Virus record (IMG/VR): IMGVR_UViG_3300024348_003972
Span: 1-30,660 of that record
Strand: one strand, 5' to 3'
Origin: a virus
DNA: 30,660 nt
Shown here: in pieces, positions 2 to 29,496 of the stretch
How the letters are laid out: the number at the start of each line of letters is the position of its first letter
How positions within the stretch are numbered: the stretch's first letter is position 1
Made by a program: the position numbers and the translations under genes
Notes under the pieces: generated by a model
Told to the model about the DNA's origin: nothing
The model's database searches: none
The model's input: only the letters and a program-made list of their open reading frames with translations

Positions 2-616
2 GAAGACTTAAACCGTCGTCTTAATGACGAAATGCAGCAATTAGCAGAAGCTATTATTGAAAAAAGGTTTACGGAAAGAGATAGAAATAGGCTCGTTCGC
101 ATCATGGAACCAAAACTTAAATACTTTATTTGGAAATTCTTTAATGATAAAGATGAAACCGAAGAGGTTCTTCACAATACTTTCTTTAAAATCTTTAAAT
201 CTGTCGATAGTTATAATCCAAAGTATCGATTTACAACTTGGATTTACACAATCGCAAGAAATGAATCTCTTTTGCATTTGCATAAACTTAAGCAGCAAAT
301 GACTACTGATATTGATAAAATTGGAAATTCCCTATTTCTAGTCGATGACAGTCGTGATAACTATGAAAAGGAGACTTCTCTTGAAACTTTATACACTGCG
401 ACTATTTTAGCAATTGAAGAAATGCCAGAATCGTTGGAAAAATCTATACTCATAGATAAAGAGTTAAACAAGATGAAGGGTGCTGATATTGCAGACAAAT
501 ATGATATGAATCTCAATACAGTTAAAACTAAAATCAGAAAAGCACGTAAAATATTAAAAGATTCAGTTTTGGAAAGTAATCCAGAGCTGGTTGAAAAAAT
601 AAAGGACCTTTTCTAA
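2..616 (+). CDS. Phage-encoded sigma-70 family (ECF-like) RNA polymerase sigma factor, 5' end possibly outside window
   Basis: A small sigma factor that would redirect host RNA polymerase. Counting from the ATG at 32, residues ~20-85 form sigma region 2, with acidic DETEEVLHNTFFKI and then RFTTWIYTIARNE, the usual core-binding and -10 recognition helices. Residues ~130-180 form region 4, with a helix-turn-helix around ADKYDMNLNTVKTKIRKAR. Both regions in about 195 residues is the ECF plan. The frame stays open upstream of ATG 32 to the window edge (EDLNRRLNDE), so the true start may lie outside. The stop overlaps the next ATG (TAATG). T4 uses a small sigma (gp55) for its TATAAATA late promoters, and the ATAAATAA boxes in this window make this protein the obvious candidate reader. 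That link is inference. The sigma assignment itself is firm. Confidence 0.88.
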   Translation, partial: EDLNRRLNDEMQQLAEAIIEKRFTERDRNRLVRIMEPKLKYFIWKFFNDKDETEEVLHNTFFKIFKSVDSYNPKYRFTTWIYTIARNESLLHLHKLKQQMTTDIDKIGNSLFLVDDSRDNYEKETSLETLYTATILAIEEMPESLEKSILIDKELNKMKGADIADKYDMNLNTVKTKIRKARKILKDSVLESNPELVEKIKDLF

Positions 617-17817: not shown

Positions 17818-18012
17818 ATGCTAATAATAGATATAAGAAATTCAGAGTCTTTGGAAAGAGCTCTTAAGCAATTAAAAAGAAAGGTTGTCGATACTAAGCA
17901 ATTACAAAACTTGCGTAATCGTAAGGAATTTGAAAAGCCTAGTGTAAAACGCCGCTCTGAAATTAATAAAGCAAAGTACATTCAAAAAAAGAACGATGCA
18001 CTTAATAAATGA
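17818..18012 (+). CDS. rpsU: Phage-encoded ribosomal protein bS21
   Basis: 64 residues, the usual length for Bacteroidota bS21. The order of features matches the family: MLIIDIRNSESLERALKQLK, the basic KRK segment, then RNRKEFEKPSVKRRSEI and a basic C-terminal helix with Lys/Gln (KAKYIQKKN). bS21 sits on the 30S platform next to the anti-Shine-Dalgarno. In Flavobacterium johnsoniae it helps mask that sequence. A phage copy could replace the host protein and bias initiation toward phage mRNAs. It lies 10 bases after a virion gene and overlaps the NUDIX gene by four bases (ATGA), so it is probably expressed late, though a weak TATACG box at 17808 is possible. No Shine-Dalgarno precedes it. Confidence 0.9.
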   Translation: MLIIDIRNSESLERALKQLKRKVVDTKQLQNLRNRKEFEKPSVKRRSEINKAKYIQKKNDALNK

Positions 18013-18491
18013 TTTTTACCTTCACAGATTACTTAGCAGAAAGTGAAAAGCAGCTTGAAATCCGAGCAGCCGGTCTTGCTATTATCTGGGAAGGCAAACT
18101 TTTATTAATACATCCATCAAATGCAAGTTGGAAAAATCAGCCGTTTGGAATTCCCAAAGGAGGAATTGAACCGGGTGAAGATCTTTTAACTTGCGCAATT
18201 CGTGAAACTAGAGAAGAGACCGGGGTTACGGTAGATCCAGAACTAATTGATAAAAATGAGAAATATTTTGTATTTTACCGTCGCGGTATTCCTCACAGTC
18301 GCTGCGCTTATTTTGAGGTACACATCGATAGCCTTGAACAAATTGGCCTTGATTCGCCGAAAATACCTAAAGAACAACTACAGGCCGAGGAGGTAGATTG
18401 GGCTGGATTTATCCCAGTACAAGAGGCAGTTAATAAATTATCACGCTCTCAACAGATAATTGCGCAGCGTTTAATTGAAACTATCGAATAG
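18009..18491 (+). CDS. NUDIX hydrolase with capsid-targeting-like N-terminus
   Basis: 160 residues. A complete Nudix box lies at G51-V73 (GGIEPGEDLL, then RETREETGV), with all metal-binding glutamates present. NUDIX enzymes hydrolyse nucleoside diphosphate-linked compounds: oxidised dNTPs, Ap4A, or RNA caps. The fold proper starts near residue 17, so residues 1-16 (IFTFTDYLAESEK) are an extra leader. It closely resembles the T4 internal-protein leader YQEFIAEA in spacing. The gene starts inside the bS21 stop codon (ATGA overlap), so it belongs to the late unit. It is thus a candidate packaged enzyme. Substrate unknown. Confidence 0.87.
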   Translation: MIFTFTDYLAESEKQLEIRAAGLAIIWEGKLLLIHPSNASWKNQPFGIPKGGIEPGEDLLTCAIRETREETGVTVDPELIDKNEKYFVFYRRGIPHSRCAYFEVHIDSLEQIGLDSPKIPKEQLQAEEVDWAGFIPVQEAVNKLSRSQQIIAQRLIETIE

Positions 18492-22163: not shown

Positions 22164-23123
22164 ATGATAAATGAAACAACTCGTCTTGGATATTGTTGTA
22201 TTAATCTTTCCTTAGATAGAAAGGTTACTGCAAATCGTGGAATGATTAAGAAAACCTTTCAACAAAAAGGTATTCAATATTGTGGCGAGTTGGCTCATCA
22301 AAATATCAAAGATATTCTAACTATTTTGCAATGGAATCTAGCCAATGACATTTATGTTTATCGTATGTCTAGCGATGTTTTTCCATGGATGTCAGAATAT
22401 GAAATTCAAGAACTTCCAAATTTTCAAGAAATTTTACCCGATATGCAGGCAATTGGCGCATTTGTGCTTGCCAATAACATCAGGCTGTCGATGCATCCAG
22501 GTCAATTTGATGTTTTGCCTTCGCCGACTCCAATTGTTGTTACTAAAACAATTAAGGATCTAAACCAGCATGCAGAAATTATGGATCTTATGGGGTTACC
22601 GACCGATCATAGATTTCCAGTTAATATCCATGTAGGTGGAACATATGGCGATAAAGAATCAGCAGCAGACAGATTTTGTCAAAATTTTAGGTTACTTAGT
22701 AAAGCTGCACAAAGTCGACTTGTTGTTGAAAATGATGATAAGGCTACTCAATACTCAGTACAAGACTTATTCGACTTAATTACTGCAAGAATTGGAACTC
22801 CAATTACTTTTGACTTTCACCACCACCGTTTTAATACAAGTGGGCTAACCGAAGAGGCTGCTCTAAAACTTGCAGCTTCAACTTGGCCATGCACTCCGCT
22901 AACACACTATTCAAGCTCAAAGAAAACATTTGAAGATTCTACAGTTATTGCTAGATCCCACGCAGATTATATCTACGAACAAATTAATCCGTACGGGTTA
23001 ACTTTAGATATCGAAGTAGAGGCTAAAGCCAAAGACCTGGCTGTTCTAAAGTATCGCGAGCAGTATAATACTCTATTAGAAAAATATATTCCATTAGAAC
23101 ATGAGCGATTGCAAGAACTGTAA
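22164..23123 (+). CDS. uvsE: UV damage endonuclease (UvsE/UvdE, TIM barrel)
   Basis: 319 residues, full family length. It nicks DNA 5' to UV photoproducts and other lesions using metal ions. Diagnostic blocks appear in order: RLGYCCIN (start), VYRMSSDVFPW, LSMHPGQFDVL, NIHVGGTYGDKE, LVVENDDK, FDFHHHRFN and DIEVEAKAKDLAV. The metal-binding His, Glu and Asp residues of these blocks are all present. The start at ATG 22164 puts the first block at residue 7, as usual. The last 23 bases overlap the downstream Cys-rich gene. With the Nei-like glycosylase at 25697, the phage carries at least two DNA-damage incision enzymes. Confidence 0.93.
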   Translation: MINETTRLGYCCINLSLDRKVTANRGMIKKTFQQKGIQYCGELAHQNIKDILTILQWNLANDIYVYRMSSDVFPWMSEYEIQELPNFQEILPDMQAIGAFVLANNIRLSMHPGQFDVLPSPTPIVVTKTIKDLNQHAEIMDLMGLPTDHRFPVNIHVGGTYGDKESAADRFCQNFRLLSKAAQSRLVVENDDKATQYSVQDLFDLITARIGTPITFDFHHHRFNTSGLTEEAALKLAASTWPCTPLTHYSSSKKTFEDSTVIARSHADYIYEQINPYGLTLDIEVEAKAKDLAVLKYREQYNTLLEKYIPLEHERLQEL

Positions 23124-25208: not shown

Positions 25209-25631
25209 TTATGCTTCTGGAGTTTCCTCAGCAGCAGGTTCTTCAGCAGGCTCTTCACCTTCTTCAGCTGGAGCTTCTTCGGTTTCTTCTTCACCTAATT
25301 TGAACATATCCTTAATTTTAGTAAGGATTTCTTCTTTTTTAGCTTCTTTGTCTTCACCATCTTCCATGTCTTTCCACTCTTTAAATTCGCTAGAATAGAA
25401 TGAATCGAAATCATCAGATGAAAGTTCATTGAACATTACATCAAGGTGTTCTTTTTTGAAAGCTTCTAAATCAGCGCCTTCTTCTGGAGCTTCTTCAACT
25501 GGAGCTTCTTCAACTGGAGCATCCGCTGCAGCTGCATCTTCTTCCTCAGTTAAACCAAAATTGTTTAAAAATTCTGCTGAGTTTACGTTTTCGTCAACCT
25601 TAGTTACGAAATCTTTGAAATTGTAAATCAT
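25209..25631 (-). CDS. Highly acidic repeat-containing protein with capsid-targeting-like leader
   Basis: 140 residues from the ATG at 25631. The frame is open to 25685, but a late box at 25653-25663 lies between, so the shorter form is chosen. Leader: IYNFKDFVTKVDE, like those of the NUDIX and T4 internal proteins. The rest is Glu/Ala/Pro-rich (APVEEAPVEEAPEE, with an 18-base direct DNA repeat) around a helical core with EAFKKEHLDVMFNELS. Extreme acidity and late expression resemble T4 prohead core or internal proteins. It could be a scaffold or a DNA-mimic protein packaged in the head. First gene of the leftward late unit. Confidence 0.7.
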   Translation of the reverse strand: MIYNFKDFVTKVDENVNSAEFLNNFGLTEEEDAAAADAPVEEAPVEEAPEEGADLEAFKKEHLDVMFNELSSDDFDSFYSSEFKEWKDMEDGEDKEAKKEEILTKIKDMFKLGEEETEEAPAEEGEEPAEEPAAEETPEA

Positions 25632-25696: not shown

Positions 25697-26497
25697 ATGC
25701 CTGAAGGACCAGAGTGCAGACGAGTATATGAAGGGTTAAGAACCCACTGCATCAATAAGAAACTAATTAAAGTAGAAATACTTGGAGGACGCTTCCTAAA
25801 GACTCCTCCAAGTGGTCTGGAGACCCTGGGGCTGCCCCTGGAGGTAGTTGGAGGCGGAGTTAAAGGCAAATTTATCTGGCTGGAATTAGAAGCAGGGATG
25901 TCTATCTGGATCACTCTAGGCATGAGTGGATTTTGGTCAATCTATGAAAAGCCGCATTCTCATATTAAATTAGTGTTTGATGATGGGCTAGAGTTATTTT
26001 TTGTTGATCAGCGTCGGTTTGGAACACTTAAGTTTGCAACTAAAGTTGAATTGGATGCAAAATTAAAAACTTTAGGAGTGGATGCACTAAATGATACAAC
26101 TGCATCTGTTTATAATACGATTAGATCATTTGAGAGGGTTCCTAATAAAACTATTGTAGAGGCTCTAATGAATCAACAATTATTTGCTGGTATTGGAAAC
26201 TACATTAAATGTGAAATGTTGTATAGAAGTGGAATATCTCCGCATAGATTGGTTAAGGATCTTACTGATAATGAGATTCAATTACTTTGGGATTATTCTA
26301 AATTAATAAGTAGAGCTTCATATGCACAAGGTGGAGCAAGTATTAGAAATTATCAACAAGTTACCGGCGAAACTGGCGACTTTGTTTTTGAATTTGAAGT
26401 CTATGGAAAGAGGGAAGATCCTCATGGAAATACAGTAATTAGAGAAAAAACAGCGGACGGCAGAACTACACATTGGGTTCCAGGTCTACAACAATAA
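25697..26497 (+). CDS. Nei/Fpg-family DNA glycosylase-lyase with zincless finger
   Basis: 266 residues. The start is fixed by chemistry: ATG 25697 gives PEGPE directly after Met, with catalytic Pro2 and Glu3; the open frame to 25664 would bury them. Lys58 (VKGKF) matches the beta-hairpin lysine. Further blocks are TLGMSGFW, FVDQRRFGTLKF and the H2TH helix region NQQLFAGIGNYIKCEM. The C-terminal finger keeps VYGKREDPHGN and DGRTTHWVPG, but all four zinc cysteines are gone, as in NEIL1-like zincless fingers. It excises oxidised bases and nicks the strand. Bases ~25780-25870 are unusually GC-rich for this genome. Confidence 0.92.
   Translation: MPEGPECRRVYEGLRTHCINKKLIKVEILGGRFLKTPPSGLETLGLPLEVVGGGVKGKFIWLELEAGMSIWITLGMSGFWSIYEKPHSHIKLVFDDGLELFFVDQRRFGTLKFATKVELDAKLKTLGVDALNDTTASVYNTIRSFERVPNKTIVEALMNQQLFAGIGNYIKCEMLYRSGISPHRLVKDLTDNEIQLLWDYSKLISRASYAQGGASIRNYQQVTGETGDFVFEFEVYGKREDPHGNTVIREKTADGRTTHWVPGLQQ
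25780..25813 (+). repeat. Perfect 10-bp inverted repeat inside the glycosylase gene
   Basis: ACTTGGAGGA at 25780-25789 and TCCTCCAAGT at 25804-25813, with a 14-base loop. It sits at the left edge of the GC-rich patch and could form an RNA hairpin early in the coding region. There is no T-run, so it is not a terminator. Confidence 0.6.
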
Positions 26498-26504
26498 ATA
26501 TAAT

Positions 26505-27062
26505 ATGCAATACATTAAACCATACACACAATTTAATGAGAGTGTTCAACCAATGCGAATCTTTTGCGATATGGATGGAGTACTTTCAGATTGGGATTCC
26601 CAGTTTGAAAAAGAGGCTGGAATGACTATTGAAGAGTTTCAAAAGGAATACTCAAAAAACGCAAGTTGGAAACTTGTTGGAAAAGCCGGCGAGGCATTTT
26701 GGGCTGGCATGGAATGGATGACTGATGGTATTGATCTTTGGACATTTATTCGAAAGTTTAACCCAACTATCTTATCTTCACCATCGCTTGATCCTAATTC
26801 AATTATAGGTAAAGCAAAATGGCTTAAGAAAAACCTGAACTGGGACTTTCCGTATATTACAAAAAAGGAAGACTGGACAGGTCAAGAGAAAACCATTTTT
26901 TATGGTAACAAATTTGAATTTGCAACCGGCCCTAGTGATATTTTAATTGATGATACTCCAAAGAAATTAGATGCATGGATTGCAGCTGGTGGTACTGGTA
27001 TTTTGCATACTAGCGCCAAGGAAACTATTGCAGAGCTAAAGAAATTAGGTTTCGATAAATAA
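26505..27062 (+). CDS. HAD-family phosphatase, 5'-nucleotidase-like, with capsid-targeting-like leader
   Basis: 185 residues. The catalytic HAD motif FCDMDGVL has D22 and D24; motif II is near LSSPS, and the motif IV acidic pair is in DILIDDTPKK. The layout with a small helical cap resembles phage and bacterial 5'(3')-deoxynucleotidases, which remove phosphate from nucleotides. The fold begins at residue 17 (MRIFCDMDG), so the first 16 residues (QYIKPYTQFNESVQP) are an extra leader like those of the NUDIX and virion-type genes. The internal ATG at 26553 could give a leaderless form. It follows the glycosylase gene by seven bases. Confidence 0.82.
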   Translation: MQYIKPYTQFNESVQPMRIFCDMDGVLSDWDSQFEKEAGMTIEEFQKEYSKNASWKLVGKAGEAFWAGMEWMTDGIDLWTFIRKFNPTILSSPSLDPNSIIGKAKWLKKNLNWDFPYITKKEDWTGQEKTIFYGNKFEFATGPSDILIDDTPKKLDAWIAAGGTGILHTSAKETIAELKKLGFDK

Positions 27063-27063
27063 C
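27054..27063 (+). promoter_or_regulatory. Late-promoter-like box (GATAAATAAC)
   Basis: Overlaps the stop codon of the HAD gene and lies 18 bases before GTG 27082. It is identical over ten bases to the box at 4532, placing the next three enzyme genes under late control. Confidence 0.6.
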
Positions 27064-27081
27064 TAAAATTACTAAATTACA

Positions 27082-28158
27082 GTGAGAATCATTGAATCTT
27101 TTACAGGATTTTTAAAAATACAGGAAATGGGAGGTTGGGCAACCACAAAAACTCAGGGGACTAAAATTACACCAGCTGTTCTGCAAGAGTCAGTTAAAGT
27201 ATTAGAATTTATTTTTGGTAAATTTAATACGCATATAAAACAGTTGGACATGGCTCCATTGAAAGTACTTGGCCCAGGAGGGTCAGGTGTTTATTTTAAA
27301 CAAGACTTGGAAGAGAACCCAGACAAAGCCTATGGTGATGTTGATATTTTAGTTGAATATCCATTAACTGAACCTCAATCAAGACGAGTTGAAATTGATA
27401 CAATGAAAGAGTACAATCAGCTTATGCTAAAATGGATTCAAGAAAATCCTCAACCAGAAATTGATGCAGAGGAGAGCGATGCAATTTCAGATGGTAGTCT
27501 AAAACTTGTAATTAACCTAAGTGCAGGTCCAGTTCAAGTTGATATTATTCCAACCTTCACCTATTCAGCTGAATGGGCAAAGGCTCGATATACTCCAATT
27601 AGAGGACTTAAAGGATTTGTTGTAGGATTTTTATATCAATCCTTTGGTAATGCTCTAGATGTATCAGTAACCGATCGTGGAGTTGTTGCTAAAATTAAAA
27701 ATGGAGAATTAGTTGGTCCCAATATGCGTAAAGACGTTGAGGAAAAGATTATCACTAGAGATTTCTCTAAATTTATTTTACACCTTGCAGAATTTGTTGA
27801 TGAATTCTCTGGAACCAAACGCGAAATTGTAATTGATGATTATTTAAATGAACATCCTGGAATTGATGTAACACAACTTTCACTTGAACAAATTTGTAAT
27901 GGAATCCTAGGATTTGCCAGAACTCTTGAAAAAACTGGTACATACGATTTACCAAATTTTAAGTATAATAGTTCAAAGGAACTTTTAGAAGAAGTTGTTA
28001 AGATTTATGCACAAAAACTACATAAACACAGAACTTCCTCTAAATACGATAAAGCCTTAACTGATTTAGCTAACCAACAGAAAGATAAAGTAATGCATGA
28101 CGCTGAAACTGCATTCGAGTATGTTAGTAATAAACTATTAGATGGAACAACTATTTAG
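27082..28158 (+). CDS. Nucleotidyltransferase-fold protein with capsid-targeting-like leader
   Basis: 358 residues with a GTG start. A pol-beta-type nucleotidyltransferase core is visible: GPGGSGVYF, then YGDVDILVEY with D86 and D88, and VQVDIIPTF with the third acid D154. The C-terminal ~150 residues are helical and basic. Such enzymes add nucleotides to RNA, protein or small molecules; the substrate is not evident, and the length and context do not fit a CCA-adding enzyme. The N-terminus RIIESFTGFLKIQEM resembles the leader set. No start upstream is possible without crossing the late box. It overlaps the phosphoesterase gene by 17 bases. Confidence 0.78.
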   Translation: MRIIESFTGFLKIQEMGGWATTKTQGTKITPAVLQESVKVLEFIFGKFNTHIKQLDMAPLKVLGPGGSGVYFKQDLEENPDKAYGDVDILVEYPLTEPQSRRVEIDTMKEYNQLMLKWIQENPQPEIDAEESDAISDGSLKLVINLSAGPVQVDIIPTFTYSAEWAKARYTPIRGLKGFVVGFLYQSFGNALDVSVTDRGVVAKIKNGELVGPNMRKDVEEKIITRDFSKFILHLAEFVDEFSGTKREIVIDDYLNEHPGIDVTQLSLEQICNGILGFARTLEKTGTYDLPNFKYNSSKELLEEVVKIYAQKLHKHRTSSKYDKALTDLANQQKDKVMHDAETAFEYVSNKLLDGTTI

Positions 28159-28771
28159 TGCAGTAAACACATTTGACAGAGCCACAACGTGGTTCATTAG
28201 CGATTTACACATAGGACATGGAAATGTCTTACGATTTGAAGAAGGCTTACACAATTTTACAGATATTAAGGAGCACGACCATGCAATTGCCAAAAACTGG
28301 CATGAAACAGTTGGACCCAACGATCATGTTTTTTTCCTAGGAGATCTTGCAATGGAGCGAACTAAATTCAAACACATTCGTGAAAACCTAGGAAAATTTG
28401 GAAAACTTCCTGGAAAAGTCCACTGGATTATTGGTAACCACGATCTTCACATAGATCAAGCCTGGCTCTATAATTTAAGAGAAGTAATGGATATTGTAGA
28501 ATTTACAAACTACAAAGAAATTATGGTTAAGGATGATAGCGAATGGGGTCTTAAAAGATTTGTACTATTCCACTATCCTCTCTATGAATGGAATGGCAAA
28601 TATCGTGGAGCATATCACCTATATGGACATTCACACGCTCACGTTCATCCATTAGCGGGAACTATGTCAGCTTGTGCGTGTATAACAGGTTATAAACCAG
28701 TCAACGCCGATTGGATGATTGACAAGATAGAAGAATTAAAATGCAAACTAGAGACACAATCAAGCGAGTAA
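28142..28771 (+). CDS. Calcineurin-like metallophosphoesterase
   Basis: 209 residues. All metal motifs are present: SDLHIGH (D21, H23), FFLGDLAM, IIGNHDLHI, LFHYPLYEW and YGHSHAHVH. The family hydrolyses phosphomonoesters or diesters of nucleotides, nucleic acids or proteins; this short single-domain form gives no substrate clue. The tight overlaps with the nucleotidyltransferase (17 bases) and the nuclease (31 bases) suggest the three work on the same nucleic-acid ends or nucleotides. ATG 28142 is the only start that keeps DLHIGH near residue 20. Confidence 0.88.
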   Translation: MEQLFSAVNTFDRATTWFISDLHIGHGNVLRFEEGLHNFTDIKEHDHAIAKNWHETVGPNDHVFFLGDLAMERTKFKHIRENLGKFGKLPGKVHWIIGNHDLHIDQAWLYNLREVMDIVEFTNYKEIMVKDDSEWGLKRFVLFHYPLYEWNGKYRGAYHLYGHSHAHVHPLAGTMSACACITGYKPVNADWMIDKIEELKCKLETQSSE

Positions 28772-29496
28772 CGCTTAATAATAAAAGATATTACCAAGTA
28801 AATTCTGAAGAACACGGTCAGTTAGGACCATTTCCAAGTGTAACAACTGTTTTAGGATCAACTGCTGATACTACAGGAATTGATAAATGGAAAGAAAGAG
28901 TCGGTGAAGCTGAGGCTACTCGAGTAAGTCAAAATGCTCTAGACCGAGGTAATATTATGCACAGACTGTGTGAAATTTATCTTAATCTTCCTGGATCAAT
29001 GACTATGCCTAAAAGGTTAGAAGAAACCTTGGCTCTTACTAGATTAGACGAGGAAATTGATAAACAGGATAATCGTGCTAAAATTGTTGGAGGCATGATG
29101 TTCTATAATTATATCAGATCAGGTTCATTTGACCGAATTAAGCGAACTGTAATGCAAGAAGAATTTTTGTGGACTCACAGAAATGGCGGTTATGCAGGAA
29201 CGGTAGATAATGTTTCAGAATTAGTTGATGGTACCTATGCCGTAATTGATTTTAAAACTGCTCGCAAACCTAAAAAGGAAGAGTGGATTGAAGATTATAA
29301 ACTTCAAGTTGCAGCATATGCAGTTGCAGTTTGGGATCGACATAAAATTAAGATTTCTCAAGCACAAATTTGGATCTCTAACGAGCAAACAATGGATCCT
29401 CAATATTTCGAAATGAATACTGAGGATCTTAAATTGTATTATAATAAATTCTTAGAGAGACTTGATAAATTTTACGAAATGTTTCCTGTTAATTAA
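28741..29496 (+). CDS. PD-(D/E)XK nuclease (RecB/Cas4-like fold)
   Basis: 251 residues. The core motif is TVDNV (D156), then AVIDFKTA with D170 and K172, and a QVAAYAVAVW helix. This spacing fits RecB-, Cas4- and phage-exonuclease-type PD-(D/E)XK enzymes. An N-terminal His in DRGNIMHRLCE (~residue 78) is the usual extra metal ligand, and there is no Fe-S cysteine cluster, which argues against Cas4 proper. It degrades or trims DNA, possibly host DNA or recombination ends. It overlaps the phosphoesterase gene by 31 bases and ends tail to tail with the leftward gene, with no room for a terminator. Confidence 0.85.
   Translation: MQTRDTIKRVTLNNKRYYQVNSEEHGQLGPFPSVTTVLGSTADTTGIDKWKERVGEAEATRVSQNALDRGNIMHRLCEIYLNLPGSMTMPKRLEETLALTRLDEEIDKQDNRAKIVGGMMFYNYIRSGSFDRIKRTVMQEEFLWTHRNGGYAGTVDNVSELVDGTYAVIDFKTARKPKKEEWIEDYKLQVAAYAVAVWDRHKIKISQAQIWISNEQTMDPQYFEMNTEDLKLYYNKFLERLDKFYEMFPVN

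What the first reader, a model, noticed from the sequence alone, without database searches (positions are those of the whole stretch)
26505..29496. HAD, nucleotidyltransferase, phosphoesterase and PD-(D/E)XK nuclease form a tight, late-controlled cluster
Four enzymes acting on phosphate groups or nucleic-acid ends are consecutive. The last three overlap by 17 and 31 bases and are preceded by a late box, while two of the four carry packaging-like leaders. DNA-metabolism genes elsewhere here use GTATAAT boxes, so late timing is odd. One reading is an injected end-processing or counter-defence set: trim ends, remove phosphates, add nucleotides, and perhaps degrade defence signals. I know of no described system with this make-up.
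Basis: inference. Interest (0 to 1): 0.7.

Follow-up and report, generated by a model that had tools for sequence, protein, structure and literature searches.

The report
Two packaged phage enzymes, two neighbours
In a large T4-like phage, four neighbouring enzyme genes are not one conserved machine: two of them (a nucleotidase and an unfamiliar nucleotidyltransferase) carry a conserved tag that probably loads them into the virus head for delivery with the DNA, and the other two are untagged neighbours.

Summary
HAD (26505-27062), nucleotidyltransferase NT (27082-28158), phosphoesterase PE (28142-28771) and PD-(D/E)XK exonuclease EXO (28741-29496) are consecutive, overlap by 17 and 31 bases, and a late box lies 28 bases before NT. 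The 'four-enzyme injected set' is only partly right. The four genes stay together only in close relatives (89-100% identity). In more distant relatives NT-PE stays adjacent, EXO lies 2-6 kb away, and HAD lies over 100 kb away or occurs without NT. PE and EXO never carry a leader. The leaders of HAD and NT are convincing: kept in 12/12 divergent HAD orthologues and 14/14 NT genes, like the T4 capsid-targeting sequence, and the same motif repeats nine times in this phage group's prohead protease-scaffold protein. Leader genes are enriched for late boxes in two genomes, so late timing is expected, not odd. NT has the fold of polymerase-beta-type nucleotidyltransferases (GLD-2, OAS) but no sequence relative was found outside this phage group. 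It starts with GTG or TTG and always has an in-frame ATG at the predicted cut. Packaging, cleavage, injection and substrates are inferred, not shown.

The parts
26493..26500 (+). AATAAATA, possible late box of HAD, only 12 bases before its ATG; doubtful
   Evidence: absent in L006
26505..27062 (+). HAD: 5'(3')-deoxyribonucleotidase-like phosphatase, 185 aa
   Evidence: phrog_2643 E 3.6e-27; DMDGV and IDDTP motifs in the translation
26505..26540 (+). HAD leader MQYIKPYTQFNE, predicted capsid-targeting sequence, cut after E12
   Evidence: leader kept in 12 of 12 divergent orthologues
27054..27061 (+). GATAAATA, late box of the NT-PE(-EXO) unit, overlapping the HAD stop codon
   Evidence: 28 bases before GTG 27082; kept at this spacing in five outgroup loci; enrichment in G001
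27082..28158 (+). NT: polymerase-beta-type nucleotidyltransferase, 358 aa, GTG start
   Evidence: core model aligns to GLD-2, OAS, TUT, cGAS; G66 G67 S68, D86, D88 and D154 invariant
27082..27126 (+). NT leader MRIIESFTGFLKIQE, predicted capsid-targeting sequence, cut after E15
   Evidence: outgroups MKNIKSFTDFLQINE and MKNIKSFTDFTDINE
27127..27129 (+). in-frame ATG (Met16) at the predicted cut, possible second start
   Evidence: present in 14 of 14 NT genes, whose first start is GTG or TTG
28142..28771 (+). PE: calcineurin-like phosphoesterase, 209 aa, no leader, adjacent to NT in all relatives that have NT and whose contig reaches PE
   Evidence: phrog_547 E 7e-37; adjacency
28741..29496 (+). 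EXO: MGME1-like PD-(D/E)XK exonuclease, 251 aa, no leader; adjacent to PE only in close relatives
   Evidence: phrog_298 E 5e-45, PDDEXK_1, MGME1 chains E 2e-4, order in relatives
18009..18491 (+). NUDIX hydrolase with leader MIFTFTDYLAE: another probable cargo protein of the same kind, outside the cluster
   Evidence: PF00293; leader p 0.001; leader kept in G014 and G021, lost or degenerate in G008 and G017

Best explanation
The four genes are a local juxtaposition in one clade of large T4-like phages, not one machine. HAD and NT are internal head proteins of the T4 kind: made late, bound to the prohead core through a short N-terminal leader, cut after a hydrophobic-x-Glu site by a gp21-type protease, kept in the head and ejected into the next host with the DNA. 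NT-PE is the conserved unit: one late promoter drives a template-independent polymerase-beta-type nucleotidyltransferase and an untagged phosphoesterase. I think NT most likely adds nucleotides to RNA 3' ends early in infection (about 40% for this substrate class), with PE acting in the producing cell on such ends or on the products. EXO is a common MGME1-like DNA exonuclease that became joined downstream. Shown by computation: gene structure, late box, leader conservation, nucleotidyltransferase fold, scattered gene order. Inferred: packaging, cleavage, injection, substrates.
For: Strict leader motif at the N-terminus of 15 of 252 G001 proteins, shuffled mean 0.48; T4 IPII and IPIII leaders fit it; S77 prohead protease encoded, its protein holds nine 14-residue repeats with the same motif, eight or nine in relatives; head protein keeps a hydrophobic-N-E site followed by A, S or G. 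HAD leader in 12/12 orthologues at 38-46% identity; NT leader in both clades, with mostly synonymous change. Leader genes carry late boxes in G001 (9/15, p 1e-4) and G017 (8/15, p 1e-3). NT fold and catalytic residues. NT-PE adjacency in all five outgroup loci, with HAD and EXO elsewhere.
Against: No virion proteomics exists for this group. Leader-like starts also occur on two endolysin-like proteins (G001 13306 and 215496), which need not be head cargo, so a leader may not always mean packaging. HAD in the window has F-N-E rather than L/I-x-E. The NT fold match is modest (best Z 8.9) and the C-terminal half is unmodelled. The RNA substrate rests on fold similarity alone.
Confidence: 0.68

Rival explanations
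1. One functional late operon: all four enzymes act together on nucleic-acid ends or defence signals, with PE and EXO carried along by binding NT or HAD.
For: Tight, overlapping, co-directional genes behind one late box in all close relatives; NT-PE linkage is old.
Against: HAD and EXO lie elsewhere in relatives, HAD and EXO occur without NT, PE and EXO have no leader. Similar overlaps are common in the genome.
Confidence: 0.1
2. The leader is not a packaging tag but a common N-terminal motif with another role (for example membrane or compartment targeting, or folding), and HAD and NT are ordinary late enzymes of nucleotide metabolism.
For: No proteomics; leader-like starts on endolysin-like and many unknown proteins.
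Against: Match to the T4 leader, to the scaffold repeats and to the protease site, and enrichment for late boxes.
Confidence: 0.17
3. NT is an OAS/cGAS-like synthase that makes a signal or decoy oligonucleotide on injection, and PE is the phosphodiesterase that removes it in the producing cell.
For: OAS2, OASL, OAS1 and cGAS are among the best structural neighbours; the third-Asp segment VQVDIIPTF is of the hDhhP kind.
Against: Terminal RNA nucleotidyltransferases score as well or better; no PADLOC hit for NT or PE; PE's relatives are generic phosphoesterases.
Confidence: 0.1

Closest known systems
T4 internal proteins (IPI, IPII, IPIII, Alt), capsid-targeting sequence and gp21 protease
   Same: Short N-terminal leader of the same pattern (MKTYQEFIAE), S77 protease in the genome, hydrophobic-x-E cut, late expression
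   Different: Cargo here are enzymes (HAD, NT, NUDIX) rather than restriction inhibitors; the protease protein carries a scaffold-like repeat array with the leader motif; packaging is not demonstrated
GLD-2/TUT terminal nucleotidyltransferases and OAS/cGAS (polymerase-beta superfamily)
   Same: Core fold and the GG-S, D-x-D and third Asp pattern
   Different: No detectable sequence similarity; C-terminal half unassigned; viral leader
RNA-repair sets of jumbo phages (RlaP or CCA nucleotidyltransferase, calcineurin-like or HAD phosphatase, RNA ligase; PMC7824862)
   Same: A polymerase-beta-type nucleotidyltransferase next to a calcineurin-like phosphoesterase in a genome group with RNA ligases
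   Different: NT is not RlaP by Pfam, the RNA ligases are not adjacent, and NT carries a leader
Packaged Nudix, Macro and ART enzymes of myoviruses (PMC9503650)
   Same: Same principle: enzymes proposed to be head-packaged and injected; a leader-bearing NUDIX is in this window
   Different: There inferred mostly from fusions and gene neighbourhood, here from a conserved leader; no nucleotidyltransferase of this kind listed in the passages read

Membership tests
T4-type capsid-targeted internal protein (HAD, NT) | Short N-terminal leader of the capsid-targeting pattern | tested here: met
   Orthologues of both fit; the window's own leaders are weaker
T4-type capsid-targeted internal protein (HAD, NT) | gp21-family (S77) prohead protease in the genome and a hydrophobic-x-E site at the leader end | tested here: met
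   PF03420 E 2.9e-12 in G001; site I-Q-E or I-N-E in NT; I/V/L-x-E in most HADs, F-N-E in the window HAD
T4-type capsid-targeted internal protein (HAD, NT) | Late transcription | tested here: met
   Late box for NT conserved; for HAD the box is doubtful
T4-type capsid-targeted internal protein (HAD, NT) | Presence in the head, cleavage and ejection | not testable with these tools
   Needs virion proteomics and infection assays
Polymerase-beta nucleotidyltransferase superfamily (NT) | Core fold with hG[GS], D-x-D and a third Asp | tested here: met
   VIA-align Z 8.9 to GLD-2, the first 34 rows all of nucleotidyltransferase or alarmone-synthase fold; residues invariant
RlaP RNA-repair nucleotidyltransferase | Match to PF10127 | tested here: not met
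   No match in G001, G017 or G014 while controls rang
CD-NTase / OAS-like synthase (NT) | Specific family sequence similarity or CBASS-type partners | tested here: inconclusive
   Structural neighbours include OAS and cGAS; no PADLOC hit
5'(3')-deoxyribonucleotidase (HAD) | Family profile match and HAD motifs | tested here: met
   phrog_2643 E 3.6e-27; activity not tested
Calcineurin-like phosphoesterase (PE) | Family profile match and metal-site motifs | tested here: met
   phrog_547 E 7e-37; Pfam Metallophos 20.5 bits, just under its cut-off 21.5; D-x-H, GD, GNHD, GHxH in the translation
MGME1-like PD-(D/E)XK exonuclease (EXO) | Profile match and D...D-x-K motif | tested here: met
   PDDEXK_1 38.5 bits over cut-off 22; MGME1 chains E 2e-4
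Conserved four-gene module HAD-NT-PE-EXO | Adjacency kept in diverged relatives | tested here: not met
   Only NT-PE stays adjacent

The most novel reading that the evidence does not exclude
NT is a new family of injected nucleotidyltransferase effector with built-in dual targeting: a weak GTG/TTG start makes the tagged form that goes into heads, and a conserved in-frame ATG exactly at the protease cut makes an untagged form that stays in the producing cell beside its phosphoesterase partner.
Probability: 0.2. Interest if true: 0.8.

Novelty: new variant of a known kind. Interest (0 to 1): 0.52.

Why it matters
T4 showed that a ten-residue tag can load a protein into a phage head for delivery. 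Here sequence conservation alone yields a candidate list of head-delivered enzymes in uncultured large phages, including a nucleotidyltransferase family that none of the databases searched names. If confirmed, it makes testable what such phages inject at the start of infection, and it offers a simple rule (leader plus late box plus the scaffold repeat) for finding cargo in related genomes.

Tried and rejected
NT: searches of Pfam, PHROGs, NCBIfam, PADLOC, PDB sequences, 50,697 phage records and one pattern-based scan of 84,980 genomes gave no relative; the genome scan used only two conserved peptides and finds close relatives only. The full-length NT model was poor (mean pLDDT 47) and its Foldseek search uninformative; the core model's Foldseek search gave no hit below 0.001 either, only the VIA-align second look was coherent. 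NT2 (G001 65243-66049), a second leader-bearing protein with GS...GDxD and QxD motifs, does not align to NT and has no family hit. RlaP membership rejected. A GTATAAT at 27963 inside NT was considered as a separate promoter for PE-EXO; it lies 179 bases before PE, outside the usual spacing, so it was not counted. The idea that overlaps mark a special operon was dropped because similar overlaps are common. The idea that the only real NT start is the ATG at 27127 was rejected: late-box spacing fits the GTG, and the 15 codons before the ATG change mostly at synonymous positions. The nine-fold scaffold repeat was not seen near the head-protein gene of Lak-B1; LR756500 has three copies. EXO relatives at 31-37% identity in other viral contigs have no NT, and only one has a PE-like gene nearby.

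Full report
WHAT WAS CHECKED. The window is a whole 30,660-base IMG/VR virus record. HAD, PE and EXO match phage families for 5'-3' deoxyribonucleotidase, phosphoesterase and exonuclease; EXO also matches solved MGME1 structures. NT matches no family.

THE PHAGE. The best long relative is a 216,815-base contig (G001, NT 97% identical). It encodes a T4-type major head protein, an S77 prohead protease and a tail sheath, so the group is T4-like. By head protein the nearest annotated records are the 462-kb phage LR756500 (40%) and the Prevotella Lak phages (33%).

LATE BOX. In G001 the core ATAAATA is enriched upstream of genes (46 against 3.6 expected), peaks 25-33 bases before starts and is nearly absent on the other strand. 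NT has GATAAATA 28 bases before its GTG. In five outgroup loci the same box precedes NT at the same spacing, although the gene upstream there is Fpg or other sequence, not HAD. HAD's own box is 12 bases from its start and absent in one close relative, so I treat it as doubtful. GTATAAT boxes precede DNA-metabolism genes in the window, as claimed.

LEADERS. T4 internal proteins II and III start MKTYQEFIAE. In T4 ten residues suffice for packaging and gp21 cuts after L/I-x-E (PMC9026906); internal proteins 1-3 are injected and block restriction enzymes (PMC12373910). In G001 the pattern [FY]xx[FYWH][LIV]xE lies in the first 20 residues of 15 of 252 proteins, against 0.48 after shuffling and 0.93 for internal stretches. 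It also occurs nine times, every 14 residues, in the prohead protease protein, and eight or nine times in relatives. That suggests, but does not show, that a leader is one copy of the core-scaffold repeat. The head protein keeps a hydrophobic-N-E site followed by A, S or G at about residue 53 in all distinct sequences read, as expected for the same protease. In the window alone the HAD and NT leaders are marginal (p about 0.025 each). The case rests on orthologues: 12 of 12 HADs at 38-46% identity start with such a leader (MLKNFSQFITE, MLKKFKQFVNE, MSNLKSFTQFVNE and so on), and NT in outgroups starts MKNIKSFTDFLQINE or MKNIKSFTDFTDINE. Differences within each clade's NT leader are mostly synonymous, so it is translated. 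PE and EXO show no leader in either clade. Leader genes are enriched for late boxes in G001 (9 of 15, odds ratio about 9, p 1e-4) and in G017 (8 of 15, p 1e-3). Late timing is therefore what head cargo should show.

GENE ORDER. All nine close relatives keep Fpg-HAD-NT-PE-EXO as far as their contigs reach. Among 22 contigs found by head protein (57-80% identity), NT is in two (G008, G017), and three more outgroup loci were found with the NT profile. NT-PE is adjacent in all five, behind Fpg in four. EXO lies about 2.1-6.2 kb beyond PE in the four where it was located. HAD is 166 kb from NT in G008 and 109 kb in G017, beside a groES-like gene in G017 and G026. HAD is in 14 of 22 contigs, mostly without NT, and G014-G016 have HAD and EXO but no NT. 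Many contigs are fragments, so absences are soft, but the separate positions are direct observations. The four-gene cluster is thus a clade-level juxtaposition, and NT-PE is the only pair with evidence of lasting linkage.

WHAT NT IS. The core domain model (residues 16-216; confident over about residues 26-160) aligns best to GLD-2 (Z 8.9, 103 residues, 2.7 A), OAS2 (8.1), OASL, OAS1, TUT1, TUT7, cGAS and poly(A) polymerase. These Z values are modest one by one, but the first 34 rows are all of nucleotidyltransferase or alarmone-synthase fold. The G-G-S, D-x-D and third-Asp residues are invariant. I infer an active, template-independent nucleotidyltransferase. RNA 3' ends are the likeliest substrate on fold grounds; an OAS-like product or protein modification is not excluded. 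It is not RlaP by Pfam, although jumbo phages use such enzymes with phosphatases and ligases in RNA repair (PMC7824862), and this phage group encodes RNA ligases elsewhere.

A POSSIBLE SECOND START. All 14 NT genes start with GTG (9) or TTG (5), and all have ATG as the first codon after the predicted cut. The strict-leader genes called in two genomes all start with ATG (30 of 30), and only one of 30 has a Met within three residues after the glutamate. The gene caller prefers ATG, but a scan allowing other starts gave the same picture in G001 (17 ATG, 1 TTG); in G017 it added eight GTG/TTG candidates, most of them inside other frames or upstream of an ATG. This would let the phage make both a tagged and an untagged NT. 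It is a hypothesis from sequence only.

VERDICT. The sequence observation stands. The reading as one injected four-enzyme system does not. Two of the enzymes, and also a NUDIX hydrolase elsewhere in the window, are good candidates for head-delivered cargo of the T4 kind. A survey has already argued that Nudix and similar enzymes are often packaged in myoviruses (PMC9503650), so the principle is known. What appears new is the cargo, above all the unnamed NT family, and the motif shared between leaders and protease-scaffold repeats, which I did not find described in the papers I could search.

Noticed in passing
L111:16284-18272 (G001 156284-158272): The prohead protease protein carries nine 14-residue repeats (YSEYVAE-type) with the same motif as the N-terminal leaders; eight or nine copies in three relatives, three in LR756500.
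   Followed up: partly
L107:5243-6049 (G001 65243-66049): A second leader-bearing protein with nucleotidyltransferase-like motifs (GSWKQKPISGDIDCLV, VQIDIFV), not alignable to NT; its leader is kept at 48% identity in G017.
   Followed up: partly
window 32-616 (+): Reads like a small sigma factor (ECF/sigma-70-like by eye); it could be the late-promoter sigma of this phage.
   Followed up: no
window 25209-25631 (-): Acidic protein starting MIYNFKDFVTKVDENV with a late box 31 bases upstream; leader-like, possibly another core or cargo protein.
   Followed up: no
L104:13306-13941 and L114:15496-16437 (G001): Two endolysin-like proteins (amidase; phrog_181 endolysin) with leader-like N-termini and late boxes; either virion lysins or a warning that the leader is not only for head cargo.
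   Followed up: partly
window 22164-23123 (+) and 25697-26497 (+): UvdE endonuclease and an Fpg/Nei-type DNA glycosylase: a phage-borne DNA-damage repair pair near the cluster.
   Followed up: no
L103:3659-6720 (LR756500, 462 kb): A PE-like gene and an EXO-like gene lie about 1.8 kb apart with no NT, a distant echo of the PE-EXO neighbourhood.
   Followed up: partly
L102:3210-6534 (Flavobacterium phage immuto): A HAD nucleotidase homologue sits directly after a 907-aa NadR-like gene and has a leader-like N-terminus (MKKVMGNLADLLLEES).
   Followed up: no
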